From Asterochloris sp. CNOR1 (lineage: Eukaryota; Chlorophyta; Trebouxiophyceae; Trebouxiales; Trebouxiaceae): 64,000 nucleotides of DNA. The position numbers and the translations under genes were made by a program. Positions within the stretch are counted from its first letter, which is position 1, and the number at the start of each line of letters is the position of its first letter. The stretch is from contig OZ017750.1 of the NCBI GenBank assembly GCA_963969365.1, positions 930,001 through 994,000 of the forward strand, read 5' to 3'. A model generated the notes under the pieces. That model made no database searches. It was not told where the DNA came from and worked only from the letters and a program-made list of their open reading frames with translations. Positions 1 to 35,360 of this stretch are shown here, in pieces.

Positions 1-3000
1 ATTCTCAGAGACTGCTGTTGACATGTTTTGCTGAGAGGGCCACCCACCTGGTGGCAGACGGAGTTGGTGCGCAAACTGGTGATTGGAGTACAGAATTTTG
101 CCAAACAGGTCTACCGCCACAATACCAGTTGCCATCCTCTCATGCGAATACCTGCAGTGCGCAGCAGCAGTTGGTAAGGAAGCCGTTCTACTGACAAGGT
201 GGGTGGGATGCGCTTGTTCTATACTCAGCAGCCTCAAGCAGCCAGTGCCCTTGTCCGGCGTGGCAGCAGGGCGCCCTGCAACAGCTCGTGTTCAGTGCAG
301 CAGCGTGGCAGCCTGGAAGGATGAGCAGGCAGCTGTCCAGCAAGCCCAGCAGAGGACCTGCAGAGCAAGCAGATAGCTGCCCTCCAAGATTTTGCCTGAG
401 AGCATACCGAGACGACTCACGTGATCTTGCAGCTGAGCACACGCAGCTCTGATGAGCCGCTAAATGAGATGGAGAAGTGAACAGGCACCTGGGGGCCATA
501 GCGGTGCTTCACAGTCGCCTGCATCCAATGGGAGTCTGATCAGCAACCCTTGCGCCTGGAATGGCCTGGCCAATGTTTTGCAAGCCACAACTGGCCAGAC
601 TCGCTAAGCGCCACTCACAGCAAACTCGAATGGTGGCAGTGCTTTGGCAGCCTCGTTGTCAGTAAGCGCGAGTTTGTAGAAGGCAGTGGCCTTGTCATTA
701 GCCTCTGTCATTTGGCGCTCAAGCTCATTATCCAGCCCAAAAGTTTGGACAGATCTGCTGGTCAGATCAGATGGGCTGTAGCCCAGCAGATCTGTGAACG
801 ACTTGCTTGCACTGTAAATCTGCACTCAGGCATTCAGCAGTCAGCCACTTTTGTGTCAGCCAGCAACCTGGAGGAGAATGTATGAAAAGCCATGCTGGAC
901 TTTGCGATCTGGGCACCTGTCCATCCCCAGCACACCATACAAGCCCCACACGATAATCTTCCTCCACCTGTAGCGCATCATCAGGTCTCAGCCAGCAGGG
1001 CGTTGTGGTATGTGGTATGTCACAGCTATGCTGCATTTGCCACCTGGTATGGCTGAAGTACAGGACAAAGGTACGCAATGCCTGGGCCCCAGCTTTGGTT
1101 CCAATATGCAGCTCACCGGTTGGAATGTGCCAGTGTAGCCTTCACCGCCGGCAGTCTGGTTGATCTCCACCTTAGCTGGGAATGTAGATCCACTCTTATG
1201 CATTGCCACGATGTCCCTGGGCCCTGTGCACAACAGGCAATCCTGTGTCGGAGGGCTGGCCACCAAACATGCCATGCTTTTTGGACACAGAGCACATCAT
1301 GATAAGATGATTGCTCCAAACAGAGATGTGGCTGGCGCAGTGCAGACATGCCAGGCAAAGCTGCAGCGCGACCTGCCAGCAGCCTTACCTGTGCCTATCA
1401 GCACTCCCTTGCCAGTCGCCTTGTATCTGGCCAGGATGGCATTGTGTTGCTGAGAGAAGGGTGGTGGCATGAGGCTGTTTACGTTCTTGTCTGTCAGCTC
1501 TCCAGGTTTGTAGCCAAACAGCTTGCATAGAGCCTGCAGGAGACGCGCAGTTGTAGCTGCCAGCTGATGTCAGGGCACCAGTGCCCTGCTGCAGGGAAGT
1601 AGGGAGGCGCTGCTTGTGGCGAGGTGTGCTGCGCTGAGCAGTCGCTGGCCAGGCACCAGATGGTTTTTGCTGAGCCTCAAGCAGCCATTGGCATGATGCC
1701 CAGTGCCTAAGTTTGCTCACCTGATCAAAGCGTGACTTGGGTCTTTGTGCAGCCACTACAATAATATGCAGCTGAAGCAGCCACCCTTGACAAAGGAGGA
1801 TGGGGCTGCTTGAGCTCACCAGGTTTGTGTACTGGATGATGCCAGTGTCACTGATCATGATGATCGCATCCGGATTCTCATCTGACATCAGGACAGGCAG
1901 GCCGCCATCTGCCCCCGCTAGGTTGGCCTCGAACAGCTGCTGCTTGGCCCGTTCAGCCTGGGCCTGCACTCAGGCATTGCACTGCCAGTAAAATCACAAA
2001 GCTCACTACCAATTGCTGCTGCCTCAGGGGCCAAAGGTGGGGGGGGGGGGGGGGGGGCTTAGGGCTGTGCAGCACAGCTGCTGACGGCAGAGAGCATGCA
2101 CTGCTGCTGCAAGTGACATGCACTGAAGATTAGACGGCTGCCTGCAGGAAGCTCACAATCTTGCCAGCAATGCTCACCGCCTCATGTACATCTGCCTCAG
2201 CCCTATACTTCTCAGCCTTCCAGGGGTCGTTCTTGACATCGCGCAGGTAGCGCTCATATGCCCTCAGCACCTTGACTGTTGTGGGATATCTCTCAAGCAT
2301 GAGCTTGAACGTCTTCTCAGAGGTGCTCTCTGATGCGTCCATCTCCTGGAAGGCCTGCAGGGTTCACCAGACTGGAGGACAGCCATTTAAACACACTCTG
2401 GGGCAGCACAGACAGGCAATTTACTTGTCTGGACCTCAAAGCACCTCTGTACCATTGCAAGGTTTGCTACGGCGCTGACAGGACTCCTGCAAAAGATTGC
2501 AGCCCACCTTGCTGAGTGCCGAAAAGCTGGCTTTGCTGCTGAGCAGCACCCTCCAGAAGCCCCTCACGCAGCGCAGCGTCTCAGAGTGAGACTGCAGCAG
2601 CTGCCTGAAGTTTGTCTGCAGGGCAGCCGGCATTGTCTTCCACCATCAGCAGAAGGTTTGCACCTATGGTTTGTCCTGCTTGGTGGCACCCATGGGCAAT
2701 CTGGCTTAGTGACTTCAGCATTGCGCCAGCTTGAGGCATGCAAAAATGATGTTTTGTCGGCCTTGCAGACCAGTCAGGTGGCCCCACATCCAGCACGTGC
2801 ATGGTCATGTCAAGGAGGCTGCTGGTCAAGGGGTGCTGTCATGCATCTTGACGAGCAGGTTTCGTGCTGCCTACTGGGCAGCATGAGCATGCGGGTCTGC
2901 CTGTCTAAGCACCTCCCACCTGGAATTCCACTATGCTGACCAAGTCAGAGCCGCCACCTCCTGAGGCGCTCATGCTCTTCTGTGTGCTCTCCCTGTCCTT

Positions 3001-5796
3001 GACAAAGAGATTGAAGCGTTCCGACATGGTGGGGCGGCACTTGCGTGCAGTGACCAGGTGCCCGCTGGCAGAGGTCTGCACCAGGTCAGCAGAAAATCCT
3101 GTGGGCAGGCTCTGCATCACAGTGCTGGCAGCAGCATGTGCTGCAGGCTAATGCAGCTGGATGGCTGCTGCTGAGCTAGAAGACTGGTGGAAAGTGCTGG
3201 CTGGACATCAAATGCTGCACAACTGGCTGCTGACTGGAAGGCAGGTAATGGAGGGCTGCCAAGCTTTTGCTGGCCGCTCACAGTGAGGCTCTTCTTGTAG
3301 GTCGACAGGAAGTTGGAGCAGGCTATGTGCAGAGCAGCGCTCTCTGGGAACTGCTGCAGGCCCGCAGTGTAGATTGCATTGGCTGCCTCCACCCACTCCT
3401 TGACTGGCTCCCCTTCCTTGTCCTTCTTGCGTGCACACCTGCAACCGCATGCAGCTGCCAAAATGGCATTGCCATGCAGGCACATCTAAGACTCTCCCAG
3501 CGGGCAAGCCAATCATGCAGCCGAACTCTGATGCATCAGCAGCAAAGCTTGCTGCCAGTGCTGAGGAACTCAAGTGCATATGGCAGGCACAGGAACCCCG
3601 TCTACAGAGACATGGCAGGCCTGATCTGTTTCTAATCTTAGCTGCCGCCTACAAATGCACAGATGCATGAGAGAATCTCAAAAGCTGTACTGCGCCAGGC
3701 GTGGATTGCAAAAGCTTCAGGTGCTGCCCCACCTGGCCACAATCTCAACCTCCTGGGCATCAAAGAACTTGTGGCGCACACGCAGCACCCCTGCAACCTT
3801 GGCTGCCCTGAAGCGGTTTGCTATCCGGTAGGTGTAGTGCAGGCGGAGGTGGGTAGCCCCCCAGCCCAGCAGAAAGGCAAAGGGCATGCCTGCACGACGC
3901 ACATCGGTCAGTCATGTCTGGGACTGGCAACCTGCCAGGCTGGCTGCCAGGCTCTTACCTGCGAGCATGACATAAGTGGCCACTCTTCCCCACGACTCGT
4001 CGATGATCAGCAAAGGAAAGAGCACCAGCGACTGCCAGGTCAGCAGCATGTAGAGAGCGGCCTGCATAGGAGATCAGGAGGTTTAGTATTGTCCAGCATT
4101 GAAGCTCAACGAGTCTGTGAGGCATGCAGGATGCTTGCGCATGTGGTGCACCCAGAGACTCAAGTGCTCATCGACAACACCTGAAAGTTGTTGATTGAGT
4201 TTGAGTAGTAGGGCAGGGTGCGAATGATGGTGTAAAACATGGTGGCATTGACCAGCAGCAGCAGGACTGCCTGAATCTTGAAGTATTCGGAGACATACTC
4301 TCCAAAGACAGTGATGATGGTCTCCAGGACAAACAGACGGAAGTTGGCCCTGCAGGAAAGGTGGTCAGCCAGGCGCTAGGCACAATCACAGAGGGGGGGG
4401 GGGGGGGGGGAGGCGTCTGCTGACAGCCATGTGATAAGCACAGCCTGATGACATAGTGCGGCTGGTCCAGGCAAAAGGCAACAGCCGCAACAAAGGCGCT
4501 CACACTGACTGTGCCCTGCCCAGCAGGTCTTTGGTGTCAGGCTCCAGATCTGTGGCAGCAATGCTCATGAAAAAGGCGATGACGATGGCGATGATGCCCG
4601 TGATGATGCCCAGAGCAAAAATAATGATGTGAGGCATTGTGAAACACTCCACAGTATGTTCAGGGATCCAGTGAGGTGGATGTGCATGGATGATTTTGCA
4701 GTTGGAGCCGGTGATAAGAAAAGCCAGGGACGACACGTCTGCAGGCACAGGAGGGCTACTGGGTTTGCATGGTGACTTGGGCAGGCATGGCACGTAGCTG
4801 GCAGGCTTGATCTGCCTTGGACAGACAGGCCTAGTACAGCTGCCCAACTCACAAAACATGTCAAAAAAGATGGACACTGAAAAGCGCAGCAGCTTGATGG
4901 GCCATATATAAGGGAAGCTGTTGGCCCTGAAGTTCTGCAGCAGGAGGGACAAGTTGTCAGAATGCAGCATTTTCTGGCTTGATAAGGGGCCACCAGAATG
5001 TGAAACCGCTGCTTTACCTGAGCAACGAACAGGCACAGGCACCCCGAAAACACCACGATGACAGCAATCAAGCTCATGAAGATGTAAAACACTGTCTGGC
5101 CGCCAGCCTGTGCAAGGCGCTGCAGCTGGGAGTACTCAAACACTCTGTAAACCCTGCATTGTATCATTGGATGGGCTCAGTCCTGACTGCACCAAGTCCC
5201 TGCTGACATGCAGTGCTGACTCACCAGATGTGCTTATCAAATGCCCAGGGAAACCATGGGGACAAGTTGAACACGCTGAGCTGCAGCGCACAGGTGAACA
5301 GGTTGCGAACACTGAATTTGCTTTTAAGTTGAGACCAGGCCCTGGCTCCCGGGACTGTGCAGCACCAGTCTCTTGACGCTAGGCAGCAGACTGCTGACCT
5401 GCAGGAAGTCCAGGATGATGACTGCCATAGCATACTTCCATGAAGTGTTCAGCTTCTCCTTGCTCAGGGTGAACAGCACCTGCACAGGAGGTCATGGCAT
5501 GGAGGTTGTCTGAAGCTTCCAGAAGGCAGCCAGGGAGGCTCTGCAGGTCCTGTTTTGACTCACCCCAAACACAGCATCCTGCAGCGACCCCTGCTGCTTC
5601 AGCAGGTCCTTGTCGTCATCGCCAGCTATGACTGCCTGCTGAGCATTCTCTGCAGAAGCACAGCAGACCAACTCAGCAGCAGCAGCAGACTTATGACAGG
5701 GGATACTGGTGCAGCTGCCACAGGCGAACCTGCATCATTTTCCCCTCCCCTTGAGCCTGTATCACTGCCGCCAGTTGAGCTGGCAGCATCTGCCAT
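1..5796 (-). CDS. TmcB-like multi-pass membrane protein with PAS domains (3' end outside window)
   Basis: Start codon at 5796; the first exon is acidic and joins an exon ending at 5564, then FTLSKEKLNTSWKYAMAVI (5479 downward), the usual N-terminal block of the TmcB-like family of algae and protists. Membrane exons follow: about 5160-5030, 4950-4860, 4740-4510 (HIIIFALGIITGIIAIVIAF), 4345-4190 (ETIITVFGEYV) and 4065-3960. The cytosolic middle has NRFRAAKVAGVLRVRHKFFD (about 3850) and FKLMLERYPTTVKVLRAYER (about 2310), both family hallmarks. At least two PAS domains follow: one spans about 1965-1100 (ENPDAIIMISDTGIIQYTNL, then NVNSLMPPPFSQQHNAILAR), another about 825-495 (KSFTDLLGYSPSDLTSRSVQ, then ATVKHRYGPQ); a possible third begins at about 150 (GIVAVDLFGKILYSN). 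Such proteins are presumed membrane sensors or signalling scaffolds; ligand and output are unknown, and no kinase or cyclase domain is seen before the edge. The reading frame changes near 4510 without a normal intron, so this joint is unresolved. Confidence 0.82.
2039..2057. repeat. G19 homopolymer (C19 on the coding strand)
   Basis: An uninterrupted run of 19 G lies in an intron of the PAS gene, between the exon ending near 2130 and the next PAS exon starting near 1965. It reads as poly-C in the transcript. It may form G-quadruplex DNA, and its length is likely to be polymorphic or mis-sequenced. Confidence 0.95.
4393..4410. repeat. G18 homopolymer (C18 on the coding strand)
   Basis: A second long G run in the same gene, in the intron just upstream (transcript sense) of the exon carrying ETIITVFGEYV. 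As poly-C it is part of the pyrimidine-rich stretch before that exon. Confidence 0.95.
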
Positions 5797-18417: not shown

Positions 18418-21400
18418 ATGAGCTCCACCCACACCATTGGCAGCTCCATATGGGTGCTGGATGGGCCATCTGGGCAGCAGGACTGGATCAAGGCATCAGT
18501 TACGAAAGTTGAGGCGGAGAAGCTCACCGTCAGGACTGAGAATGGGGACACGCGAGTGTGCAAACCAGAGGGGTGCCCCCTGCAGAACCCACCCTCGCGG
18601 GGTGGCGTGGAGGTGCGTCTGCAGTGCCGCATGCGATGTGCTGTGAGGAGGCCCGTGGGCCTGCTTACTCTGAAGGCTGCATGCACTGCACCACACCTTT
18701 TAAGCTGCTGCTGGCAGGAGCCCGCATCGGCCAGGCAACAAATTGCTTGACTTGCCAGAGTGCGTGCTCCCCTTGCTTGTTATCGAGCATCCATCAGAGA
18801 GCTTGCCGGACACCCCATCAGCAAGGTGCAGGCATTGTGGCAGCCTAGGCAGTGCCAGGTGTCCTCCAGAGTTGGTCTTGGAGAGACAGCTTCTGCACAT
18901 GCACGACCCAGCCTTTCCCCCTCCCTCAGGATCCCCGCTGTACTCGGCTTCGAGTTCCAGCGTAGGCAGCTGGGCAATGGAGAATGCTCTGCTTTGCAGG
19001 ACAGAACCATACCCATCCTCCCCAAACGAGCCTGGGGTGCAAATGAGGGCTCACACCAGCAGCACATGCATGCCCGGCATGGGGCACCTGTAGGCCATGA
19101 TATTTCTGTCCCATGTGGGCAACCCTGGGGTGCCCTTGAGCGCCCACAACAGGTCATGCCCAACCTGCATCCCATGGGGCCCCTGTGCTACCTCAGCAAG
19201 CATCACAGTTCTGCAATGCGGCACCTGCAGACCATGACCCTCCTGTAGTATGTGATCAAGCCTGGCACGCTCTGGAACACACAGCAGCCTCACTGCACCT
19301 GCAGGACATGACCACCCTGTCCTACCTGAATGAGCCAGGGGTGCTCTGGAATCTCAAGGTGCGCTACCAGCTGGACGGGATCTACACCTACACTGGCAGC
19401 ATCTTGATTGCGGTCAACCCCTTCCAGTCCCTCCCGCTGCTGTATGGGGGCATGATGATGGAGCAGTACCGGGGTCGGCCCCTGGGGGAGCTGTCCCCCC
19501 ACGTGTACGCCATTGCGGACGCTGCCTACAAGCAGATGAGGCAGAAGGGCAGGAGCCAGTCCATCCTGGTGAGCAGGCCTGGCGCTGGGCAACCGCAGGG
19601 CCAGCGCTTACTGCTGGCTCTCAGTGCTGTTGCTGTCTTGAGTCTGCATGTAGGCAGGTGAGGCAGATGGGCAGAAGCCAGTCCACGCTGGCGAGCTGGC
19701 GTGAGGTTGGATGTCAACATTCGGTCATGTCGTTGGCAGTAGGCAGATGCCCTGCAAGGGCTGGGCACTTGATGTCAATGAGAAAGGCCAGCAGGCATCA
19801 GTGTTTGCGGTCACTGTCAGTGTCAGCTCCAGTGGCTGGTGAGGCAGCGTCTGAGGCGGAGGTGCAAAGCTTGTCATCCTGTTGAGGCGGCACTGCAGCA
19901 TATTCAAGCCTTCTAACCGGCCAGCAGCTCAGGCAGCTGCCACATGCGGCAGGCTTGCATTGCTTTGGACAGAATCTGGTGCCAGATCTGCTGCCTCGAC
20001 TGTTCTGCTGGCAGTCTCCCCTTGGCTTAAGCCTTCTTGCTCAGGCACCTCACTAGCTTGTCGCCTTGTGTGCCCCCGCCTGTGACTGAGCATCATTCTG
20101 GCTGTGCAGATCAGCGGGGAGTCTGGAGCTGGGAAGACAGAGACCAGCAAGCTGATCATGAACTACCTGGCATGGATGGGTAATGGCGGCGTGACAGATG
20201 GTCAGCCAGGTGTTGAGCAGCAGGTCCGTGCCAATCACTCTTTGTGCACATGGCCTGCCTTCCTCCGCCGAGGACCAGGCAGTCTCCAAATGTCAGGAAG
20301 AGCCTTGTGCCAGCATCCAAGAGCAGTGCTTGTGGATCAGGATTCTAAGAGGCGCAGCATGACACGGCACCCTCCCCGTTAAAGTGCATGTTCTGCTGTC
20401 ACACATTGCTCAGCAACCAGTGGCACCCTGTGCAGATTCTACAGTCCCCCTGCTGGGTACCATCCCATGACGCCAGGAATGGCCTGCATCAGCTGCGCAG
20501 TCGCACCTGATTTAGATGCTGTTCCCTCCGCTGCTCACAAGTGTCAGGCTGCTACATCTCAAGCGCAAGCAGCCCAACACGCATGGGCACGCTTGCAGGT
20601 TCTGGAGTCCAACCCCTTGCTGGAGGCCTTCGGCAACGCAAAGACCACCAGGAATGACAATTCCTCGCGCTTTGGGAAGTTTGTGGAGATCCAGTTTAAC
20701 AAGGCCGGGCGCATCAGTGGAGCAGCTGTGCGCACCTACCTGCTGGAACGCTCCCGGGTGGTGCAGGTCAATGATCCTGAGCGCAACTACCACATCTTCT
20801 ATCAGGTGGGGTGCCTGTGGGCTTGAATGCAGCCTTTTGGCTGGGGGGCTGCACCCATCATCGTGCTGGGGTTGCCCATCTACAATGAATGCACTGCTGC
20901 CAGCTGAGGCTCACATCATGGAGGTTGTGAGGCTGGGAACCAACCGCCTTGACGAGCAGACAGGCTCCAGGCAGCAAAGTGCAGGCCTGCCGCTCGATAA
21001 GGCCCAGCAACCCTGTCAGGCATCAGGCCGCTAGTTATGGAGCATATATGGACACTCCTGCACATCAGTGCCTGCCTGGCAGCCAGCACTTCCCTGCAGC
21101 AGCCCAAGTGCAGGCCTGATGTGCTGTGCCCGCGGCCTGCAGCTGTGCGATGGTGCAAGCCCTGCGGAGCAGCAGGCCTGGCGCCTGCTGCCGGCTAAGG
21201 AGTTCCACTACCTGAATCAGTCCTCGTGCTACAACCTTCCCCGCGTCAGCAATGCTGAGGAGTACACGGTGCGTGTTATGCCCCTCGCTAGCCACTGTCT
21301 GCCTTCTTGGGGTGTGCTGCGTGGCCCCAGTCTGCTGCCTGGAATTGGTGCATGCCACCTGGCCAGCAGGGGCAGTCTTGTGCGGCGCCTGATACCCACT

Positions 21401-24400
21401 GCTGGCCACACTGCCTGCTTTCGTGTCACACCCTGCCCCCCTGCCGCCCCTCCCTTCTGGCTGCATCCTGCTGTTGTAATGTGTGATGTTCAACCCCCTG
21501 CGGTTGTCTGCAGTTCTGCTGAGCACCGGCAACCCCTGGCCACTGCTTACAGACGCGTCATGTGGGCAAGTGTGGACTAGCGTGCATGCTGTGTAAAAGC
21601 CGAGCCAATGGGCACATCCCGTTGGCTTGAAGCCATGTCTCACCCATGGCATCTCCTGTGCTGCAGCGCACCAGGCAGGCCATGACCCATGTTGGCATTG
21701 CGGTGGCCGAGCAGGATGCCGTATTCCAGGCTGTGGCAGCTGTGCTGCACCTTGGGAACTTGCAATTTGAGGAGAGCTCTGAGCCAGACAGCTCGCAGCT
21801 GAAGCCAGGAGCTGTCAAGCACCTGCAGGCAGCATCAGAGCTGCTCGGCGTCAATCCTGAGGGGCTAGGCAAGGCGCTGACCACCAGGACTCGCCAGACC
21901 GTCGATGGTGAGTGCTCTGTAGCGCGTGATTTCATGCAGCATCACGCGCCACCAGGTCCGCAACATCTGCTTGCTGGGGATCATGCGCTGAGCACATACA
22001 CGTGCAGGTGGGGCCAGCACTGCTGCTGCTTGTGTTATAGCAGCACCAACCAATCGCCTGCAGTGCCCAGGCCGAACGGGAGGCCTGGCTGGGCACGTCT
22101 GCGCTGCTGCTGGTGGTGCCATGTACAGCACCCACCAGCCGCCACATGTGTGGCATTCAGGCATTGTCAGCCCTGCTAACGCGGGTGTCTCATGCGCAGG
22201 GCCAATTGTCAGCCCCATCGATGTCAAGGCAGCCACTGACAACAGGGATTCCCTTGCCAAGACCATCTACTCTCGCCTATTTGACTGGCTGGTGGTCAAA
22301 ATCAACTCAGCCATTGGCCAGGTGTGAGCCTCGCACCGATGTTGTTCAAGCCCTGGCTGGGCAGCCTGGCAGCCGGTCATGCAGGACCAACACCAGCTTG
22401 TCATGGCTCAACGCTTCTGCAAGCTGACTCAGCATCACTTGCTGACTGATTGAAGTTTGAGGACCCCACAAATCCCAAAATTTGCCTGGTGTGCACTGAC
22501 ATGTGCAACGCACCAAGGCCAGCCTGGCTGCTGTCCTAAGCAAGCATGAACGTCACATCTGCAGCCAGCTGCTTATGCAGACTCCCTCTGTCTGTAGGAC
22601 CCCACAGCCCCAACGCTGGTTGGCGTGCTGGACATCTATGGCTTTGAGTGCTTCAAGGAAAACGACTTCGAGCAGTTCTGCATCAACCTGGCCAACGAGA
22701 AGCTGCAGCAGCACTTCAACCAGCATGTCTTCAAGATGGAGCAGGTGGGGTGTCTGCCATAACCCTCCTGCCACACTGCTGTGCACAGGAGTCCCTGTGT
22801 TTGACCCAAAATGTTGGCGGTGCTGTTTGTCAGATACCTTTGCCAGCCCTATGCACCGGCTCCCTGCCTGGCCCCAAATGAAACTGCTGTGCTGTCTGCT
22901 GTTCAGGTGATGCTGTGCTGCCCAAGGATATGCACATTTGCTGTGTTTGGTCACCTAGCACTGACGAACAGATGGCCAGTGCCCCCCGCCATATGTGTCT
23001 GTCTCCATCGCCTTTCTGTTCTGTGCAGGCTGAGTATGAGCGTGAGGCCATTGACTGGAGCTATATCGAGTTTGTGGACAATCAGGATGTGCTCGACCTC
23101 ATCGAGAGGAAAATGGGCATCCTGGACTTGCTGGACGAGACCTGCAGGTTTCCTAAGGTTGGCCAGCGAGTCAGGATACTACAACATGGAGTGATGCTGC
23201 AGGCCTGTGAAGGCCACAGACATCTGCAGGCATGCACAGCAGCATGAAAACAATGCATTCAGTGTTGCTGTACCAACGCACAACCAGCAGCAAGCTCTTG
23301 GGCCGCGTGAATTGTGCCATAACAACGCAGCAGCTCACCTGGTGCGTGAGAGGCAGCACCCGGCATCTTGGGTTTGATTGTGGTACAAAGAAGGCTGCGA
23401 TCTGCCTGCAGGCAACCAACACAGACTTGGCAAACCGACTGTACAACACGCCCGAGATCTTCAAGAGTTCCCGCTTCAGCAAGCCAAAATTGTCGCAGAC
23501 AGGGTTCCAGATAGAGCACTATGCTGGTGCTGTCGGCTACAAGACAGACAACTTCTTGGTAAGCCAGCACATGCTACCACCCAGCCCAGTGTTCTTGGTT
23601 TATGACCATCCTGCTGACCTTGTGATGCTTTGTGTTCAGCCATTTAGTCCTGAATGTTGACTGCGTGGGTCTGTATGCCGTGGCTGTGCAGAAGTGTGCC
23701 ATGCACCCTCAGGTAGGCTGTGCTGCCTCGCAGCTTGGTCGGCAGGGGCTGTCATGTCTGGCTGGAGGGTTGTGCTGAATACGTCGCGTGCCCCTGCAGG
23801 TCAAGAACAAAGACTTCGTCGTGGCAGAGCACCAGGAGCTCATGCAGAATAGCACCCAAGCCTTTGTGCGCACCCTTTTCCCTGCTGAGGCACAGGAAAT
23901 CAATGGTGTAGACAAAGTGAGCCTGCTCTTGCTGCCTGCTGCCTGCTCATCTGCTTCTCAACCCCTGCTGCGCGTCACCCAGTGCTAGGTGCGCGAGTGC
24001 AGCAGATGTTCTGTTGCTGGCAAGTGCCCCGCACCGAGAAACAGCTTTGCTTGTGGGGAACCTGCTGGCAAAACGTGTGCATCTCTGGTTGTGGCCGTGA
24101 CGTTAACCAAGCTGCCCTTTGCGGTCACAGAGTTTCAGGTTGCCTCTGCACTACAGGGGACCAAGGCCGCCTCCAAGGTGGGGCAGGGCTACAAGTTCAG
24201 CAGCGTGGGCAGCCGCTTCAAGAAGCAGCTGCAGGAGCTGATGGACGCGCTGCACCAAATGGAGCCTCACTACATCCGGTGCATCAAGCCCAACTCCCAC
24301 AACAGGTCCGCCCTGGCAGCCTGTGCACACATGGTCCCCCGCAGGCCAGCATGCTGCAATACTCCATCTGCTGGCTGGCTGGCCTGCCCTGCTTGCACCT

Positions 24401-27400
24401 GCCTCCAGCTGCTTTGAGCTTGGCCCCCAAGAAGTAATCTCTTGTACCTTTTCATGTAGATCGATATCTATTTGCCGAATCATTGTTCTGCATCACCACT
24501 CTCTCCAAGTAGCCACGTATGCCCAGCCCCACATGCACACTGTTTCTCCCTGCAGGCCCATGGACTTTGAGAACATCAACGTCCTGCACCAGCTGCGCTG
24601 CGGGGGTGTGCTGGAGGCTGTGCGCATCAGCTGCGCAGGGTACCCCACCAAAACCCCCTACGAGGACTTTGTCGACCACTTCTGGAACCTGGTTCCAGAG
24701 CTGCTGAGCAACCAGGAGCTGGATGACGTGGCGCTGAGCAAGGCTGTCCTGAAGAAGGCCAATCTTGTGGGGTACCAGTGCGGGCAGACCAAGGTGCGGG
24801 GATGCCCAGTCTGGAGTCCCGTTCTGCATCAAGGTCTGTCAAAAAGGGCTTGTCACTGCCAGTCAGGACTGTCTTCAAGGAGGCTCACTGTTGTGCGCAA
24901 GTGCAGAGACTCTCCGGGGTGCAGTTGCGCAGCAATGAGCCACACTCACCCTTGTGGCAGCAATTTGAGCAAAGAAGGGCACAGGAGGGAAGCCTGCCCC
25001 CATTACACATGCTGCACCCAGTGCAGACTTACAGAGATTGACCCAGGCTGCCTGTTGTCACACTGCGTGGACGCAGCGCAGTCCCTGGCCAGGTCGCTGC
25101 CATTGCAAGTGTCCAACAGGCTGGTTGGATGGCTGGCCCTCCCTGCAATGCCTCCTAAACCCTACTCCCTAACCCCTCCCCGGCGGCGCAGGGCCTGGCG
25201 CAGGTTCCAGCTCTAGCGCAATGTTCAGCTGATCTGTCCCTGCTGCAGGTGTTCCTGCGGGCAGGGCAGATGGCCGTGCTGGACAAGATGCGCACGGACA
25301 TGATGCACGAGGCGGCCGTCACCATCCAGCGTCACATCCAGGGCTTCATCGTCAGGCGGCGCTTCCTGCGCACACGCGCAGCCATTGTGCAGCTGCAGGT
25401 GACTGGGGAACCCCTGTGTGCTGTAGCGCAGGCATGGTGCTCTGCACTGCCAGGCGGCGCTTCTTGCGTGCCTGAGTGCCGCAGGGGACCAGGCGCAGCC
25501 CGATGGCATGTTCAAAGCCTCTTGTGGAGCAGCCAGAGGCCCTCTGCAGATGTGGGGTCGTGTGTGTGCTGAGCAGGCTGAGCTTGCCAGTTCCTGGCTC
25601 AATGTCCACGTGACTGCCATGCACCTGTGCCTCTGTGTGCCAAGCATGCCTGCAGCACACTCACAGTGCTGCACAGGAGCAACTCGCGGCACAGCCATGC
25701 AGACACCCCTTTGGAAGCTGCCCACATGCTGAGGGCTGCCCCCTGGGTGCAGGCTGGCGTCCGTGGCATGCGGGCGAGGGCAGACGCCAGGCGCAAGCGC
25801 CGCCTCCGGGCGGCCATCATCATCCAGAGCTGCGCACGTATGCATCGCCACAGGAGCCGCTTCTTGGAGCAGCGCGCTGCAGTGCTGGCCATCCAGTCGG
25901 CCTACAGGGGTCGGGTGGCCCGGACGCAGGCCATGGAGATTAGGTAGGCGCCCCAGCTGCCGCATGCTCAATGTCAGTGTCCCTGGCAGACGCATGGAGG
26001 CCCTGCTCATCAGCCCCAGGCAGCTTGCGCACTATGCTGCATGCGGTCGTACTTTGCAGGCATGGCGGTCCGGGTTGGATCCCCTGCAGATGTCTGTGCC
26101 TTAGTCAACCTTGGCCCTGAGCAACCTGGGCTGCGAAGAGTGCAGTACCCAGACCTGAGGCCGTCTGCAGTCTTGTTGCTGCGGATCTTGTTGCACCTGC
26201 AGGTGAAATAGGCTCAGGCAACTGTGGGCCTGTCTGGTGGTCGCTGCTGCATGTGGCTTTGCCACCAGAGGGTCTCAGGCAGTTGTGTGGGCTGCTCCCC
26301 TGGCTTGTGCCAGCCTGAGGACTTAGCCCTGGCGTCGCCAGGAACATCCAGGCAAGATTGCAGGACACTCATGTGGGCCCTCTCTGTTCTGTGCAGGCAG
26401 CAGAGGGCGGCAGTCTGCATCCAGCGCAGGTGGCGAGGCCACATCACTCGGCAGCGATATCTGCTGCATCGGCGCCGCGTGGTGCGTCTGCAATGCCTCT
26501 GGCGGGCCAAGCTGGCGCGGCGGGAACTGCGCAAGCGCCGCGCCAGCCAACGCGAGGCTGGCAAGCTGCTGCAGGTAAGGTTCCTCTGCCTTACTCAATG
26601 AGGCAAAGTCAGATGCTGGGCGCCAAGAGGGGGCCAATGCTAGTGTTGGCAAGAGGGGGCTGGCAAGGTGCTGCAGGCTAGCCCCCGGCAGGAGTCCTGT
26701 TCAGGCTCTGTTGCTGTGTTTCCGTGTCAATCAGCAGAAGACAGGTGCTGGCCGCCAGTGCCTTGACATGCTGGACAATGTCAGGCATCACCTGCCGCTG
26801 CCCAGAGAGCTTAGCTATATCTTCTGCTGCTCATCTCGGCAAATGTGGAACTTCACACAATAGCCAGTGTGGTGATACCCCGCTGCTTATGACGTGCAGG
26901 ATAAGAAGGCACTTGAGGACCGCCTCAAGGAGGTGCAGACCATCCTGGAGACAGTGCAGAACCAGCGCAATGAGCTGCGCCAGCTGTACAAGGTGGGGCC
27001 TGACCTGGCGCCCATGCCATGGAGTTGCCTCAGCTTGCTGCATGCCTGGCTGGCTGCTCTACGCAGCCTCAATGGCGCAGCCAACGGCTGCAGCCTGCTT
27101 GTCTGCATGTGTCCAGGTGCTTGCTGTCCGCAACACAGATGCCTGGTCGACGTGTTGTGCTTTGAGGTCTGTGTTGTGCTTATCATACATGCTGAAGATG
27201 GCAGGTCAACTGTCCTGGAAATTGCTGCTGCAGGAGGAGCGAGCCACCCGGGAGGCCACAGAGACCCAGCTGGCAGCTGCCGTGCACGAGGCTGAGGAGG
27301 CTACAGCCAGCGCTCAGCAGCAGGCTATCCAGCAGCTGGCAGACGAGGTGAGTCCCATCAGCTTCTGCACGGTCAGCCAAGCACATCAAGCACATGCGCA

Positions 27401-30400
27401 GCTGCACTGCTGCCGCTTGTGCAGCTTGATGGGCAGAGTCATAGAGCTGCATTGAGGCCCAGTCCTGTTCATGGTTAGATTGATCCCAACATATGAGCAG
27501 TGGGATACTGCTGATTGCCCAGCCCTGCTTGGCCACTCCCCACGAGTCTTCCCGACCAGTGCACAATGTTGGGCTCAAGTGCCAAGCGCCAGGCACTGGA
27601 GGGAGCAACTGGCAGCAGTGAGTCTCCCCAATACCTTGAGTGGTATAGGCGCCAGTTGGTACCCTTCTCCTTCTCAGACACAAGCAGCTGCTTTGCAGAC
27701 TGCCAAGCGCCAGGCACCAGTACGGCAGCAGGCCTCTGGTAGTATCTCAAGTGGCACTTTCCTGCGTGGCAGCTCTGAGAGGCAGTCTGGAGATATCGGT
27801 TGATATCTTGCAGACTGTCAAGCCTGCCAGGCACTGAAACAGCAGCCGCCTTCTGGTAGTGCTTAGAGCTTGCATGGCAGCTTGAGAGGAACTTCAGGTG
27901 TTGTATTCATGCCCTGCAGACTGTTCAGCGCCAGGCACTTTAGGAGCAGCCCGCTTCTTGCAGTGTTTGACAGACTGAGGACATCACAAGTATTCTACTC
28001 ATGCGCTGCAGACTGCCAAGCGGGAATTCAGGTGTTGTGTTCCTGCCCTGCAGACAGCCAAACGTCCAGGCACCGGAGGAGCAGCTGGCTTCTTGCATTG
28101 TTCCAAGGAATGAGCCAATCTTAGGTATTCAATGCATGCACCGCAGACTGCCAAGCGCCAGGCTCTGGAGGAACAGCTGGCAGAGCTGAGGAAGCAGGCA
28201 CAGTCATCTATGGACCAGGCCAATACAGTGAAGGCGCGCCTGCAGTCCGAGCTGATCACTGCTCAGCAGAAGATGGCGTCCCTGCAGAAGGAGCGCTCAG
28301 AAGTGGAGGTCAGCTGAGGCATGCATGCAGAGGCGCTGCCTTCTTCGTACAGGCACAGCAAAATTTGCTAATGTCACACTGCAGTCAGCTCATCAACGGT
28401 GGACATGCTCTGGTGTTGCAGCTTTGCTGTCTCTTGTTTCCATCCTGTGGTAGCTCAACACTGTTGTACAAAACATCAAATCTGCTTATCACTATGAGCA
28501 TGCTCTGTGCATGCACGCGAGCAGGTTGATTATGTCAAACCTGCTGCAATCAGCTGCCTAAATCCACGTCCCTATGCCCCCCCTGCTTTGCAAAGCAAGG
28601 CAGGACGCCCAAGCATCTGCCTTCCAGCTGTTGTGGAACCACCCCCCCTGCCAAGTTGCACATCAATTCCTGCAGAACAAGGGCATCGCTGTAAAGGATG
28701 ACCTCATGACACGCCTGAGCAATGCCATCAAGCAGCGGGACGTGGCGCGGGAGGAGGCTCTGCTGGCCAAGGAGGAGCTCAAGAAGATGCAGGCAAGCCC
28801 CAGGGATGGGCAGGCGTGCAGCATGCACATGCGATCGATGCGCCTGGTTGTGTGTGCCTGGGGCAGCTCTGGTTGTGGAGCGTCCCCTTGCAGTACGAGG
28901 TCGAAAGCATCCGCTGTGCCTGTACCGACTCTTTCCTCGACCGCAGACCAGCGCTGTGTGCACAGGCAGGGATGTATGTGTCACACCCCAGCCACTGCAT
29001 GCTGTGGACCCTCAGGACTGACCATGCTGTTCACATGCTGCCTGCAGGAGGACTTGGAGACTGGGGCCCTGCAGGCGGCGCCCAAGGCTGGAGTCGGGGC
29101 TCCAGGCAGCCCCGAGGTGGCCCAGCAGCAGCCAGGGCCACAGCTGGGGCGGGTGTCGGAGTCAGGGTCCCCACAGCAGGTGGTGCCCCCGCAGCAGCAA
29201 CAGCATCTGCCGCCGCAGCCACAGGCAGCCCCTGCGGACCCTGGTGAGCTGCTGCTCCCTCCCCAACCTGCTGCAGCCTGCTTCATACTGTCCTGACGCT
29301 TCCCTGCATGTGGCCAGGCAGCGCTCCCGAGCGTACATGTCTAGTGTCCTGCACAGCCTGGCTGGCATGCTGCTGACAGCAAGGAGGCTTGGTGCCTGCA
29401 GGCCGCATCAGCATGCCACGACGGTATGTGGGCACACCTACAACGCCGCAGAGGCCAGAGGCCAATGGGATTCCAGCAGGCTATGGGAGCATGAGACCTA
29501 GCCCCAGCCCAGGTAGCTTGCAGCAACCCTGCGCTGCCCTGCTTGTCTGCAACCTTCCTGTGGCGAGGACCGCTCATCTCCTTCGGCAAGCCATGCACTG
29601 CCTGGCTGGACTGGGAGGGCATGGACTGGCAAAGCGGTTTGGCAGCACTTGCAGCAGCTGCATGCCACCACTTCACCACCTGCATGCACCTCCTGCAGGT
29701 GTTGTGCGGCGCCTCAGCGACAATGGAGCCCTGTCCCCAGCGGGCAGCATTGACGCCAGCGTGCATGGCATGCCCGATGGCATCTCAGACGCCGACCGGA
29801 AGCAGCGGGAACTGTACACGCGGCAGCAGCAGCTGCTGCGGGAGCAGCGGACTGCTGACCAGGAGAAACTGCTGGCCACCATTTCAGGTGCGTGTGTGCT
29901 GCCTCCGCAACCCTGCTTGCTGCCCCTGGCTGCCCAGTCAGGAGAAGCCGCTGGCCCACCATCTCAGGGGGGAGTGGTCCGCCTCAGCACCCCTTCTTAC
30001 TGCGCTAGCATCTGCACAGACTCCCACACCAGGTGCCGCTGCTGGCCCACCACCTGAGGTGAGTGTGATCGGCCTCAGCAGCCCAGCTTGCTGTCCCAGG
30101 TTGCCACACTGCTGGTCACCATCTCAGGTGCGGCAAACATGTCTTGGGCTTGATTGCCCGCTGTGGCTGGCTCAGCAACTGTTCTTTGTCACTGGCCCCT
30201 GTCTCAGGGGTCTGCCTGCCCCAGGGGTCTGCCTGCCCACACGTTCAGGTGCACACCACAGGCCTGCTGTTCACAGCTGGGGGCATTCCTAAGCGTGTGC
30301 AGGCCCCAGTGGCCCATGGTGGCAGCTGCTGTTCACCGCTGGGGGCGTTCCTGACCGTGTGCGGGATGCTGCACACCATGTCTGCCCGGCTGGCGGCTGG

Positions 30401-33400
30401 GGTGCGCTGCAGTGCACCTGATAGAGCAGGGCTGCATTGCATACAGACGCGTGCAGGCACATGCATCTGTTTGAGGATGTGCTGCATGCCTTTGTAAGCC
30501 ATCTAGGCCTGAGCACAGTGTGGAGTGTCCCTTGCACTGTTGCTGCTCTGCAACCCTTTGCTGCCCTGCTGCAGATAATCTTGGCTTCCACCAGGGTCGT
30601 CCGCTGGCGGCTGTGGTCATCTTCAGGTCAGCCCCTGCCACCAGGCCATGCAGTCACGCTCAACAATTTGCTGCCCGTGTGGCTCTCGCCGGCAGCAGCC
30701 TGACTCCAGTCAAAGCTTTGCTCCGAGCAGCTAAGCCCACTTGCGCATCCCTGCTTCCGCATGAGAGTGTGCTACAGCCCCATGATTCTGTCTGCACCCC
30801 ATTCCACACGGGGCCACCGCATCTTTTGCTGCAAGTGCTGCCTGGCATTTCCCAAAGAGCAGAGCTGTCTGGCCCCCCTCTCCTGAGTGCTGCTTGGCAC
30901 GCCCGTCAACAGGACGGACTTGGCCTGGCCCCTCTCCTGGCGGTTGTCCTGGGCCAGCCTGTCACCTTGCCTTACAAGGCAGAGGATATCACCTGACTCT
31001 GTTCTCAATGCGTCCCTGCGCTGGCGTGCAGGTCGTGCTTGCAGTGGAAGGTCTTCCAGGCAGACCGCACGGTGCTTTTTGACAAAATCATCAACTCCAT
31101 GGGCAGCCAGATTGAGCAACAGCAGGACAACAACGGGTGCCTGGCCTACTGGCTGAGCAACACTGTCACCCTCCTGTACCTGCTGCAGCGGAATATCAAG
31201 CCAGCCAGCGGGGGATCCTACAACTCACGCCTCAGGGCTTCGCCGACGCAGAGGTGAGCAGGGGATGCGCCCTCCTGCGCTCTCTGGCACGTCATTGCCC
31301 TCTAGATTTCATGATTCTGCAAGGGCACAGTTAGACTTGACATCATTGTTGAGGTTTGCTTGTGCAGGGGTGGTGGGGGCCTGCAAGGAGCTTGCATCTG
31401 CTTTGCCTCTGCACCAGCACAGACGCTGCACATGCCATGGAAGGTTGTGTGATTGAAAGAGAGCTCTAGAGGGGTACTCCCGCTGCTATGCAGTCCTATA
31501 CCATGCGCCAATGTGTGCCAGGCTGCAGCAGGTTCAGCTGGCTGTGCCTCTGTCTGTGCCTGTCGCCACCTACTGCATGTGCTCTGCTGCAGCAGCTGCG
31601 GCTGGCTGGGCTCTCTCAAGGACGTGCACGCACATGCACATTGCTGGCCTGCGCCTCCTCTCATGCTGCCGCCTGCCTTGCTGCAGCAGTCGCAGCTGGT
31701 TGGGCTCCTCCAAGGGAACATTCACCAGCTTCTTCAGCCGAACAGGGCACTCTAGCGGCGTGGACCAGGCGCAGGCCAGCATCCACGGTGGGGCAGCCGG
31801 CAGCCACTTCCGACAGGCAAGCAGATACACCCCTGGGCAACGCCTGTGCACATTGCTGCAGTGCTGACTGATGGGGCTGACTTTCACAGAACTTGACTCC
31901 CTGATGCACTATCATCAGGTAGCTCACTGATGCACTGCATCATGCTCATGGGTATGCTGGATATGCGCAAGGGAGCTCACTGGTGCCTATATACATAAAA
32001 CACATTGAGTGGGGAGTAAACACCAGGTTGTTTGAGCCAGCTTACTTTCTCAGCTTGTTCTGCATCCTTTCCACGCAAAAATCGCCTGCCACAGGGACAG
32101 AATCTGTACCCTCTATGCGTGTATGCCCATCTCTGAACCGCAGAGAAGTTGCAGCACCACAGCACCCTTTGCTGCAAATGAAGACCACGTACGCAGTCCC
32201 GCTTCTCAAGCAGCTGCTGGGCCCATTGCTGCAAGGAAAAGGGCCCAAGTGCTGTACCTTGCTGTCTGCGTACAGCCAACTGCTGCAGCGATACAGAGTT
32301 TCCTTGATTGCAGGTGGAGGCCAAATACCCCGCCCTGCTGTTCAAGCAGCAGCTGGACGCTTTTGTGCAGAAGATCTTCCCCATGCTGCGCGACAACGTG
32401 AAGAAGGAGATCACTCCCCAGCTGGCGGCCTGCATCCACGCCCCGCGGACTGCCACCACGCGCAGCCGGCGGACCATGAACCCAGGGCAACCGTCGGACT
32501 CCCAAGGCACGCTGGGTGGTGTAGGCGAGCCGCTGCTGCCTGCCTGCCTGCCCCTGCCACTGGGAATGACCTGCCAGCTGTGGACCACTGCCGATGGCAT
32601 TGTTGTCAGAGGACCCCCTGCTGACAATGACCTGCCAGTCATGGCCCGCTGCCAGGCACAATGCTCTCAGCTGGCACGCAAGCGTTGGTCAATGTGGGGT
32701 GCCCCAAGTGTGGCCGCTCTGCCTGCAGACTGCTGCATGTGGCTGCTGTCAGCTGGCCTCTCTGGATGCATGGTCCTGAATGCAACAAGGGCCTGATTGC
32801 CAACCTTGATTGTCTTTTGGCAAGCTGGTTCAGCGCCGCGTGGTCTGCTGTCTGGCTTGGCATACTGCATGGCCAAACATGTGGCAACCTCTCAGGTACC
32901 TGCCCATCTTTGCACCAGCTGTCCTGCTTCCTGCCTCTTGAGTGGCTAGCTCAAGGCAACATGTGTCTGAGCAGGAATGGCGGGTGCTGGGCGGATGCTC
33001 ACCTCACACACCTCTACCCTGCGCAACTCGGCGGGCGCAACCACTCAGCTGAGCCCCCACTGGCGCAACATCCTCAACGTGTTTGATCAGCTGCTGGCCA
33101 CTCTCAAGCAGAACAATGTGCCCCCCTTCCTGGTGAGCTGCCTGCTGGCTTGTCAGCAGCACTGGCCTGGTTGCTTGTGGGCATCATGTCTGTGCCTCAC
33201 CTGTGTAAAATCACTGATGCTAGCGTCCATGCTGATGCCGAGCCACATGGCAGTCTTGAGATCTCTGCTTAGCGAAAACCAAAAACCATGCTGAGGCTGC
33301 TCAATGACTGTTTTGCCCACTTGTGTACATCCCAATCTTCGCTACCATCCTGCGAAACCAGCACGCTGCCCCACAGTGTCTGTGCAGGATCAAAGCTACC

Positions 33401-35360
33401 GGCGCCCATATGCCACTCTGAAAGCATGCACTCTACAGCTCTGCTGCCCTCTGGTTGCAGGTGCGCAAGCTGTTCCAGCAGCTCTTCTCCTTCGTCAATG
33501 TGCAGCTCTTCAACCAGCTGCTGCTGCGGCGTGAGTGCTGCAGCTTCAGCAATGGGGAGTACGTGAAGACGGGGCTAGCAGAGGTCGAGAATTGGATCCA
33601 CTGCGCGGGCAGTGAGTGGGTTGGGGAGTCGTGGGAGGAGCTGCGCTACATCCGCCAGGTGGGCTGAGGCCTTGACAAGCGCGTCAGGCACTGCTTAAGC
33701 ATGTCATGCAAGCCCAAGAACTGTGCTTGCGCTGAGAAACAGCAACCCTTGGAGGTCAAACTGTGAGGGAATGTGAACTGGACTGGCAGCACGTTGCTGG
33801 TTGGGCAAGCAATCAGAGTCAAACCAAACAGTGCAGCATGGTCAGGCGGGCTGAGACAGCAAGTTCTGGGAAAACGCAGTAAACCTAGGTGGCTGCTGGG
33901 TGCTAATTGGGATGAGGGGTTTGGACGCTGAACAGACAGAGCAGCTAGCTGTGGGGGTCCCGGTGAGAGGGCGCATGCACTGGAGCGGCTGCCTGGTGCT
34001 AAGCAGGAAGCTTGCAAGCTTACTAGACAATGCAGCATGGTGATGGTGCCAACTGTTTGTTCTCTTGCTGGGCAATTTGGCAAGTGGGCTCCTAGCAGGG
34101 GGCCTGCTTTAACGCAGCGCTAGGGCAAGCCTTAGAGACATGCAGTCTGCCTCACCTGTGCAACAGCTTCACGGCAGCTCCCGTTCTCTCCTGCCTGCAG
34201 GCGGTGCAGTTCTTGGTGATCCACCAGAAGCACAAGAAGAGTCTGGAGGAGATCACCAATGACCTGTGCCCCGTGCTCAGCGTGCAGCAGCTGTACCGCA
34301 TCAGGTCAGTCCTCCAGGCAGCACTTGCATGCCCCATCTGCACGACCCCCTCCAAGCGGCGCCTACGTGCGCCATCTGCATGTGCCCTGTATATGTTTCA
34401 ACACCCCCGTCTGGAGCCAGCGCACCAGCTGCTGCAGTGTGCCCTGCGAGTGCATGCATCGCTGCAGACGTGGAAAGGTGAGATGTTGCTGACTCTGCAA
34501 TTGCCTAGCCGACGCCAACTGCAGCTGAGGCAATATGCTACATGGTGCTGCCAGTGACAAGTCCTGACAGGGTCCAGGGCAGGACTGTGACTTATTACGA
34601 TGGAAAGCACCTCTGCAGGTCCCATGCTTGAGCCTGCAGCACCATGCTCTGGACCAACCCCCAGGGTGCCCACCACACCTCGCTTGTCTGCTTGCCCTGG
34701 ACTCAAACAACCCCCAAAGTGCTCATCTGCTCCTGTTGTGCCTGCCCTGCAGCACCATGTACTGGGATGACAGGTATGGGACTGAAACGGTGAGCCATGA
34801 CGTGCTGGGACGCATGAAGCAGCTGATGGTGGACAACAACACGGCCGCCAGTCACAGCTTCCTGCTGGACGATGACTCCAGCATCCCCTTCTCGCTGGAC
34901 GACATCTCCCAGCTCATGGAGGACAAGGTGGGACCCGCAGCTCAGCACACCCCGTTGATCACCCTTTTCTTGAGCCTGGCACAAGACAGACAGTGTGGGG
35001 CCTCACTTGTGTGGTGGCTGTACAGCAAGTATGAATGTAGTGGAGGCTGGGGTCATGGCTGCGCTGCATGTGGGTGCTGTGGGTGCTGCATCGAGCTCTG
35101 TGCAACACTTGCTGTGCGGCTCAGTGCTGCAGTGCCAGCTGAGGTGGCTGCTACCTTGCACGAGGCGTGGAGCTGCCTGTTTTGCTCCTCCGCAAGTGCC
35201 TGCTGCACACAGGGCCCCCCTCTGAGGAAGTGTCATGAAAGTCGCCCTTGCCCTGCAGGACATGTACAGCGAGGTACCAGTGCCCCTCAGCCTCAAAGAC
35301 AGCAGGTCCTTCGACTTTCTGCAAAGGGATCTGCGTAGGGGAAGCTTAGGGGACACCTGA
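18418..35360 (+). CDS. Class XI myosin heavy chain
   Basis: Actin-based organelle motor of the plant/algal class XI (myosin V-like). Exon 1 (18418-18612) encodes the SH3-like N-terminus ([20 protein letters not shown]). Exon 2 (19305-19568) starts [20 protein letters not shown]. Motor motifs: P-loop [14 protein letters not shown] (20110-20223), switch [11 protein letters not shown] (about 20660), switch [10 protein letters not shown] (about 22635), [18 protein letters not shown] (about 22695), and the SH1-helix region [20 protein letters not shown] (about 24585). The neck has six IQ motifs over 25250-26573 (e.g. [38 protein letters not shown]). Coiled-coil exons run from 26900 to 28792. The globular DIL tail spans about 30580-35360: [20 protein letters not shown] (31140), [14 protein letters not shown] (32314), [20 protein letters not shown] (33060), and a final exon ending GSLGDT. 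The order matches plant myosin XI end to end and it looks intact. Two introns appear to be GC-AG, and several contain copies of their own exon edges. Confidence 0.94.
19533..19697 (+). repeat. Myosin exon 2 end and donor duplicated in the next intron
   Basis: The exon end plus GT donor at about 19533-19575 (coding [12 protein letters not shown]) is repeated with mismatches at 19652-19697, inside the following intron. The copy keeps GAGGCAG and AGCCAGTCCA, but its donor reads GC instead of GT. Spacing is about 120 bp. Confidence 0.75.
26551..26682 (+). repeat. Myosin IQ-exon end duplicated in its intron
   Basis: The exon terminus GGCTGGCAAGCTGCTGCAG, ending at 26573 before a GTAAGG donor, recurs at 26659-26677 with one mismatch, followed by GC rather than GT. 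A partial intermediate copy lies near 26618-26645. Confidence 0.6.
27570..28195 (+). repeat. Array of six decayed copies of a splice acceptor plus exon start (myosin coiled coil)
   Basis: The genuine exon begins at 28146 with ACTGCCAAGCGCCAGGCTCT after a CGCAG acceptor. Upstream the same edge recurs with starts near 27577, 27699, 27814, 27920, 28012 and 28054. Spacings are about 122, 115, 106, 92, 42 and 92 bp. Five of the six copies keep a GCAG acceptor, all keep the start of the exon-like segment, and some also keep GAGCAGCTGGC further in. Between copies runs a shared spacer with TTCAGGTGTTGT and CATGC elements. Divergence suggests successive tandem duplications of different ages. Confidence 0.85.
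29863..30125 (+). repeat. Repeated exon end plus donor (myosin)
   Basis: The exon end GAGAAACTGCTGGCCACCAT, followed by TTCAG and a GT donor (29864-29888), is followed in the intron by imperfect copies near 29941-29970, 30036-30060 and 30103-30130. Each keeps CTGCTGG(C/T)C(C)ACCA and a CAG/GAG edge before GGT or GGG. CCGCCTCAGC-type spacers are shared by the copies. Confidence 0.7.
30271..30365 (+). repeat. Imperfect tandem repeat, about 60-bp period (myosin intron)
   Basis: Two copies of a unit containing GCTGGGGGCATTCCTAAGCG (30276) and GCTGGGGGCGTTCCTGACCG (30338) lie in the intron before the DIL-domain exons. It is separate from the exon-edge repeat just upstream. Confidence 0.7.

What the first reader, a model, noticed from the sequence alone, without database searches (positions are those of the whole stretch)
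27570..28195. Six-fold array of a splice acceptor plus exon start inside a myosin intron
Upstream of the coiled-coil exon at 28146, the acceptor and first bases of that exon recur at about 27577, 27699, 27814, 27920, 28012 and 28054. Each copy is at a different stage of decay and most keep a GCAG acceptor. A copy chosen by mistake would insert or replace residues in the coiled coil, so this is either an evolving mutually exclusive exon cluster or an intron growing by repeated tandem duplication of its own 3' edge.
Basis: partly seen in the sequence, partly recalled or inferred. Interest (0 to 1): 0.7.

Follow-up and report, generated by a model that had tools for sequence, protein, structure and literature searches.

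The report
Intron grown from splice-edge duplications
In a photosynthetic eukaryote's myosin gene, one intron has lengthened through repeated tandem duplication of its own end together with the start of the next exon, and signs of the same process are seen at a minority of other introns sampled from this genome.

Summary
The array is real: six decayed copies of [intron 3' end + start of exon 28147-28308] lie in the 799-nt intron 27348-28146 of a class V/XI-type myosin gene; five keep TGCAG|AC. It is not a mutually exclusive exon cluster: only copy 1 is followed by a donor-like site, and extending the exon back to any copy meets in-frame stops.

It is not isolated. With a gene finder built here I tested 374 introns from 314 kb. 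Exon edges recur in their own intron at 19/370 acceptors and 33/368 donors (P<=0.005, about 2 expected each; reverse-complement controls 4 and 1). In regions not chosen for this finding 28/251 introns carry an echo, from 1/42 (100-200 nt) to 16/51 (450 nt or more). There the acceptor excess is weak by this test (6/248, control 3/248) but clear by a second method (11, 3.0 expected).

Open: the exon's own acceptor (CCGCAG) is the second weakest of 417 scored, weaker than five decoys. RNA is needed. The kind of event is known; I found no report of it at this frequency in the searches made.

The parts
18418..35360 (+). Predicted 31-exon myosin gene (Myosin_N, motor, IQ, coiled coil, DIL)
   Evidence: gene model; Pfam Myosin_head 803.9 bits, DIL 102.2, IQ 53.5, Myosin_N 27.4; hand-joined motor exons match 7dhw_A, 858.6 bits. 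Last exon scores -9.9; ends are uncertain. Coiled coil is by eye.
27348..28146 (+). Focal intron, 799 nt, phase 0, donor GAG|GTGAGT, acceptor CCGCAG|ACT
   Evidence: flanking exons 27234-27347 and 28147-28308
27578..27618 (+). Copy 1: exon-like start, acceptor lost (ctca), followed by donor-like GTGAGT at 27618
27699..27735 (+). Copy 2: TGCAG|ACTGCCAAGCGCCAGGCAC
   Evidence: acceptor 6.9 bits
27814..27850 (+). Copy 3: TGCAG|ACTGTCAAGC with 2-nt insertion, stop at codon 8
   Evidence: acceptor 6.7 bits
27920..27956 (+). Copy 4: TGCAG|ACTGTTCAGC, stop at codon 8
   Evidence: acceptor 10.2 bits
28012..28022 (+). Copy 5: truncated, TGCAG|ACTGCCAAGCG
   Evidence: acceptor 10.1 bits
28054..28091 (+). 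Copy 6: TGCAG|ACAGCCAAACG with 1-nt insertion
   Evidence: acceptor 13.0 bits
27888..28157 (+). 135-nt duplication of a two-unit block (c4-c5 against c6-exon start), probably a late event
   Evidence: TRF, 77% matches; the repeat finder D6, 76% over 92 nt
28147..28308 (+). Coding exon ([17 protein letters not shown]...), whose start is the exon part of the unit
18613..19304 (+). Second acceptor array in the same gene: echoes of exon start DMTTLSYL at about 19094, 19171, 19231
   Evidence: this intron did not reach P<=0.005
19569..20109 (+). Donor echo: exon end + donor repeated at 19691 (122 nt offset, 29/34 identical)
26575..26899 (+). Donor echo at 26677 (102 nt offset, 25/34 identical)
29888..30574 (+). 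Donor array: exon end CTGGCCACCATTTCAG|gtgcgt repeated at offsets 80, 171, 240 (a further weak match at 30249)
   Evidence: both edges of this intron reached P<=0.005
31254..31686 (+). Acceptor echoes at 31529 and 31593
31817..32313 (+). Acceptor echo at about 32178

Best explanation
The intron grew by successive tandem duplications, each about 40-135 nt, whose segment spanned the 3' splice junction (tens of nt of intron end plus up to about 35 nt of exon). Each event doubles the acceptor region; if splicing uses the exon-proximal (downstream) acceptor, the protein is unchanged, the older copy becomes intron, and it decays. Shown: the repeats, their place across the junction, decay by indels and stops, the same kind of echo at other acceptors and donors, and longer introns carrying more of them. 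Inferred: that the downstream acceptor is the one used, that an exon-definition-like preference explains this, and that the duplications come from slippage or templated break repair. By the count the focal junction has the most echo copies in the sample; I read it as an extreme case of a fairly common neutral process.
For: Array and shuffle control. Stops and lack of donors in the copies. Other junctions, 374 introns: acceptors 19/370, donors 33/368 at P<=0.005, reverse complement 4 and 1; exon interior 1/244 and 0/243; intron at the other end of the same exon 3/264 and 2/264. Junction-spanning local repeats in unselected C1+C2+C8: 11 acceptor-type vs 3.0 expected (P printed as 0.0 of 500 placements), 7 donor-type vs 2.9 (P 0.018). 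Echo introns have median 528 nt vs 272 nt (44 vs 283 introns, p 2.7e-10). Young case: M13 intron 2856-3490, 100-bp acceptor duplication, 55 of 57 exon bases identical.
Against: No RNA data. The exon's own acceptor (1.24 bits) is the second weakest of 417 and weaker than five decoys (6.7-13.0), odd if it is the one used. TGCAGAC is fully conserved in 5/5 decoys (column-shuffle P 0.00175, chosen after seeing the data), more than simple decay suggests. In unselected regions the acceptor echo rate by the alignment test is 6/248 against 3/248 in the control. An automatic count of differences between the real exon and the decoy majority does not single out the real exon as codon-constrained (4 of 8 at third positions).
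Confidence: 0.86

Rival explanations
1. Evolving mutually exclusive (or cassette) exon cluster: the copies are alternative versions of the exon start, chosen one at a time.
For: Five of six copies keep an acceptor of 6.7-13.0 bits; all six keep some exon-like sequence.
Against: One donor-like site among the copies, a weak one at 27618; stops at codon 8 in c3 and c4; c5 has about 11 nt only; extension to 28146 has stops from every copy. Units match only about the first 35 nt of a 162-nt exon.
Confidence: 0.03
2. Functional decoy ladder: the strong upstream acceptors compete with the weak true acceptor, giving unproductive mRNA with premature stops and so setting myosin output.
For: True acceptor is second weakest of 417 while decoys at 28054, 27920 and 28012 score 13.0, 10.2 and 10.1 bits; TGCAGAC intact in 5/5 decoys; extension from any copy carries stops.
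Against: Across the sample, when the search excludes the splice site itself, echoes keep AG in 7 of 14 and GT in 7 of 18, about the identity of the neighbouring bases, so no general upkeep is seen. The PWM is self-trained and may overstate TGCAG: 371 of 417 predicted acceptors have it, but only 14 of 18 hand-called ones (counted by eye, the focal one among the 4 exceptions).
Confidence: 0.1
3. Chance or local composition (CTGCAG-rich, GC-rich introns) imitating repeats.
For: CTGCAG recurs in the introns read; detection that used the splice site inflated apparent AG retention (15/18, against 7/14).
Against: Shuffle, reverse-complement, exon-interior and other-end controls.
Confidence: 0.01

Closest known systems
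Internal tandem repeats at exon-intron boundaries in human duplicated genes (PMC2812944; passages seen)
   Same: Tandem repeats lying across exon-intron boundaries change intron structure; authors speak of exon and intron elongations and report 27 intron modifications.
   Different: There: minisatellites of on average 30-bp units, recent, in duplicated genes often polymorphic, often with both isoforms, novel introns formed. Here: offsets mostly 40-200 nt, mostly diverged, in predicted ordinary genes.
[quoted passage not shown] potato RdRp case PMC4974935, passages seen; Drosophila cases PMC2891723, passages seen)
   Same: Tandem duplication supplies splice signals. In the potato gene the duplicate carried branch site, pyrimidine tract and 3' splice site of an upstream intron.
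   Different: Those create a new intron; here the copies lie inside one intron and no added intron position is seen, though without relatives its history is untested.
[D] stwintrons in Lipomyces (PMC7138796; abstract and outline seen)
   Same: May involve duplication of the donor element of an intron.
   Different: Stwintrons are spliced in consecutive reactions; nothing here shows nested splicing.
[quoted passage not shown] recalled, seen only as cited)
   Same: Within-gene duplication said to be common in eukaryotes.
   Different: Focus on intron creation, judging by its title.

Membership tests
Mutually exclusive exon cluster | Each alternative exon has its own acceptor and donor | tested here: not met
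   acceptors in 5 of 6 copies, donor-like site only after copy 1
Mutually exclusive exon cluster | Each alternative exon is open and keeps the frame | tested here: not met
   stops from every copy when extended to 28146; insertions in c3 and c6
Mutually exclusive exon cluster | Transcripts use one alternative at a time | not testable with these tools
   no RNA data
Intron gain by tandem duplication (Rogers model) | Duplicated segment is exonic and holds AGGT | tested here: not met
   units include intron sequence upstream of the acceptor
Intron gain by tandem duplication (Rogers model) | A new intron position appears relative to relatives | not testable with these tools
   no related genome is held
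Intron elongation by tandem repeat across an exon-intron boundary | Direct repeats spanning the junction, extra copies on the intron side | tested here: met
Intron elongation by tandem repeat across an exon-intron boundary | Copy number differs between strains or relatives | not testable with these tools
   no relatives held
Introner elements | Same element in many introns across the genome | tested here: not met
   array sequence found only at its own place, at that search's sensitivity

The most novel reading that the evidence does not exclude
In this genome duplication across splice junctions is a main route by which introns lengthen, so that the spliceosome is repeatedly confronted with two near-identical splice sites, mostly 40-200 nt apart, and settles on the exon-proximal one, as exon definition would predict; in the focal myosin intron the leftover strong acceptors still compete with the weak true acceptor and throttle productive mRNA.
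Probability: 0.2. Interest if true: 0.78.

Novelty: new variant of a known kind. Interest (0 to 1): 0.55.

Why it matters
How introns get longer is usually ascribed to transposons or unspecified small insertions (general knowledge; transposons were not surveyed here). This genome records another route, with copies of graded age, at about one intron in nine of the unselected sample (28 of 251). Each young duplication is a natural experiment on how a spliceosome picks between two almost identical sites, which RNA sequencing of this organism could read directly.

Tried and rejected
Mutually exclusive exons: rejected on donors and stops. Introner or dispersed element: rejected, one location only. 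Selective upkeep of decoy sites: a first count (AG kept 15/18, GT 14/21) was biased because the splice site took part in finding the repeat; with exon bases 4-48 only, and counting the 14 of 18 acceptor and 18 of 28 donor echoes whose alignment came within 8 nt of the searched edge and fitted in the intron, it fell to 7/14 and 7/18, so the general claim was dropped. Donor-over-acceptor asymmetry: 23 vs 6 in unselected regions by alignment (binomial p 0.0023), but the second method gives 7 donor-type vs 11 acceptor-type, so I do not claim it. Enrichment of junction-spanning repeats (roughly 2- to 4-fold) is not read as a mutational preference: the exon side is conserved, which lengthens detectability. 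Exon-side copies are fewer than expected but not absent: EE+EJ+JE 8 vs 13.4 in unselected regions, P 0.05. Codon-position count of exon against decoys did not discriminate; only the two silent differences in the best-aligned part, read by eye, point to coding constraint. A first self-training of the gene finder collapsed into many tiny exons and was replaced by one with a stiffer exon penalty (17 of 18 hand-made exons exact). The MAFFT alignment of whole units put copies out of register and was not used. Paper searches: 0 papers; 0 papers; one search gave passages of the review PMC3488318.

Full report
WHAT IS THERE. The window is part of a 56.4-Mb genome in 21 contigs. It is nuclear DNA of a photosynthetic eukaryote: introns throughout, and 31 exon-level matches to the chlorophyll a/b-binding family. 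I think it is a green alga, but that is my inference. The finding lies in a myosin gene predicted at 18418-35360 with 31 exons. Its protein has Myosin_N, motor, IQ and DIL domains, and the hand-joined motor exons align with 7dhw_A at 858.6 bits. Motor + IQ + coiled coil + DIL is the class V/XI plan (own knowledge). Motor-domain matches also lie on C3 and C13, so there are probably two more myosin genes.

THE ARRAY. Twelve self-offsets reach 26/40 identity against a mean of 0.11 in shuffles. Copies differ in decay: c1 has lost its acceptor, c3 and c6 carry small insertions, c5 is cut to about 11 nt of exon, and c4-c5 and c6-exon look like a duplication of a two-unit block of 135 nt. The array is found at no other place in the genome at the sensitivity.

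NOT ALTERNATIVE EXONS. One donor-like site lies among the copies (27618, 4.3 bits). Extending the exon back to any copy meets 1 to 5 in-frame stops, and c3 and c4 stop at codon 8. In the best-aligned part the real exon differs from the decoy majority at two third-codon sites, both silent (GCT/GCA, GAA/GAG; alignment, read by eye); the automatic count over the whole aligned stretch, 4 of 8 differences at third positions, does not set the real exon apart from the decoys.

THE SAME THING ELSEWHERE. While reading the gene I saw other introns with faded copies of neighbouring exon edges. I therefore wrote a gene finder, trained from 18 hand-made exons and then on itself (17 of 18 recovered exactly), and tested introns for copies of their own flanking exon edges, against equally long stretches of other introns. 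First run, 276 introns: 18/276 acceptor edges and 22/275 donor edges at P<=0.005; reverse complement 3/276 and 0/275; exon interior 1/244 and 0/243 (reverse complement of those 2/244 and 1/243). Skipping the three exon bases next to the splice site: 18/325 and 28/323, while the same edges against the intron at the other end of the exon gave 3/264 and 2/264. With 50 kb added that played no part in training: 19/370 and 33/368, reverse complement 4/370 and 1/368; 48 of 374 introns have at least one echo. In the regions not chosen for this finding (C1, C2, C8): acceptors 6/248 (control 3/248), donors 23/248 (control 1/248), and 28 of 251 introns with at least one echo. So outside the window and the two other myosin loci the acceptor signal is weak by this test. 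A different method, counting ungapped local repeats and placing them at random 500 times, finds 11 acceptor-type against 3.0 expected and 7 donor-type against 2.9 (P 0.018) in the same regions, and 9 against 2.7 for each type in the window and myosin loci. Repeats wholly inside introns are also somewhat more than expected in the unselected regions (33 against 24.3, P 0.034). The two methods disagree on which side is commoner; I make no claim on that.

LENGTH. Introns with echoes are longer: median 528 against 272 nt, 44 against 283 introns (echoes at P<=0.007). In unselected regions the fraction with an echo is 1/42, 6/93, 5/65, 12/42 and 4/9 for lengths 100-200, 200-300, 300-450, 450-700 and 700 nt or more. 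The null is length-matched, so this is not merely a larger target. Offsets are mostly 40-200 nt (range 39-569) and show no preference for multiples of three (remainders 2, 1, 0: 17, 15, 14).

AGES. The youngest-looking acceptor case, on C13, is a 100-bp duplication with 55 of 57 exon bases identical and an intact second acceptor; use of the upstream site would shift the frame. It stands at the top of the list; cases further down are much more diverged.

WHAT IT DOES. The simplest account: short tandem duplications arise widely; those that span a junction and leave the exon-proximal site in use are harmless and make the intron longer; the surplus copy decays. That the exon-proximal site is used follows here from reading frames and homology (for example [12 protein letters not shown] across the donor-echo intron 19569-20109), not from RNA. 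Exon definition would explain such a choice; this is inference.

WHAT DOES NOT FIT. The exon's own acceptor, CCGCAG, scores 1.24 bits, second lowest of 417 predicted acceptors, while five decoys score 6.7 to 13.0, and TGCAGAC is unchanged in all five (post hoc). Elsewhere echo sites decay like their surroundings (AG 7/14, GT 7/18). So either this array is recent enough to keep its sites, or the decoys still matter in this gene. Only RNA can tell.

KNOWN OR NEW. Tandem repeats at exon-intron boundaries that elongate introns are described for human duplicated genes (PMC2812944, passages), and tandem duplication as a source of new introns is well known (PMC4974935 and PMC2891723, passages). In nine answered searches of the held open-access library I met no report of intron lengthening by splice-junction duplication at this frequency; the library lacks most subscription papers, and most hits were seen only as listings.

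LIMITS. Gene models are predictions without RNA. Sample: 314 kb of 56.4 Mb. No related genome is held, so copy-number change, age and direction cannot be tested. Whether other eukaryotes show the same level was not tested.

Noticed in passing
window 29888-30574: Mirror-image array at a 5' splice site: exon end plus donor repeated at offsets 80, 171 and 240 nt; the copy at 171 has a higher donor score (11.5) than the used one (9.9).
   Followed up: partly
window 18613-19304: Second acceptor array in the same gene, three faded copies of the exon start coding DMTTLSYL.
   Followed up: partly
L011, minus strand, intron 2856-3490: Young-looking 100-bp duplication of an acceptor and exon start in a myosin locus, 55 of 57 exon bases identical, both acceptors intact; a natural test of splice-site choice.
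   Followed up: partly
L010 (C3 myosin locus): Echoes in 6 of its 12 tested introns, the highest fraction of the regions sampled; why is unknown.
   Followed up: no
window 22161-22200: Exon start uncertain: the gene finder prefers 22161; the hand model by motor homology uses 22200.
   Followed up: no
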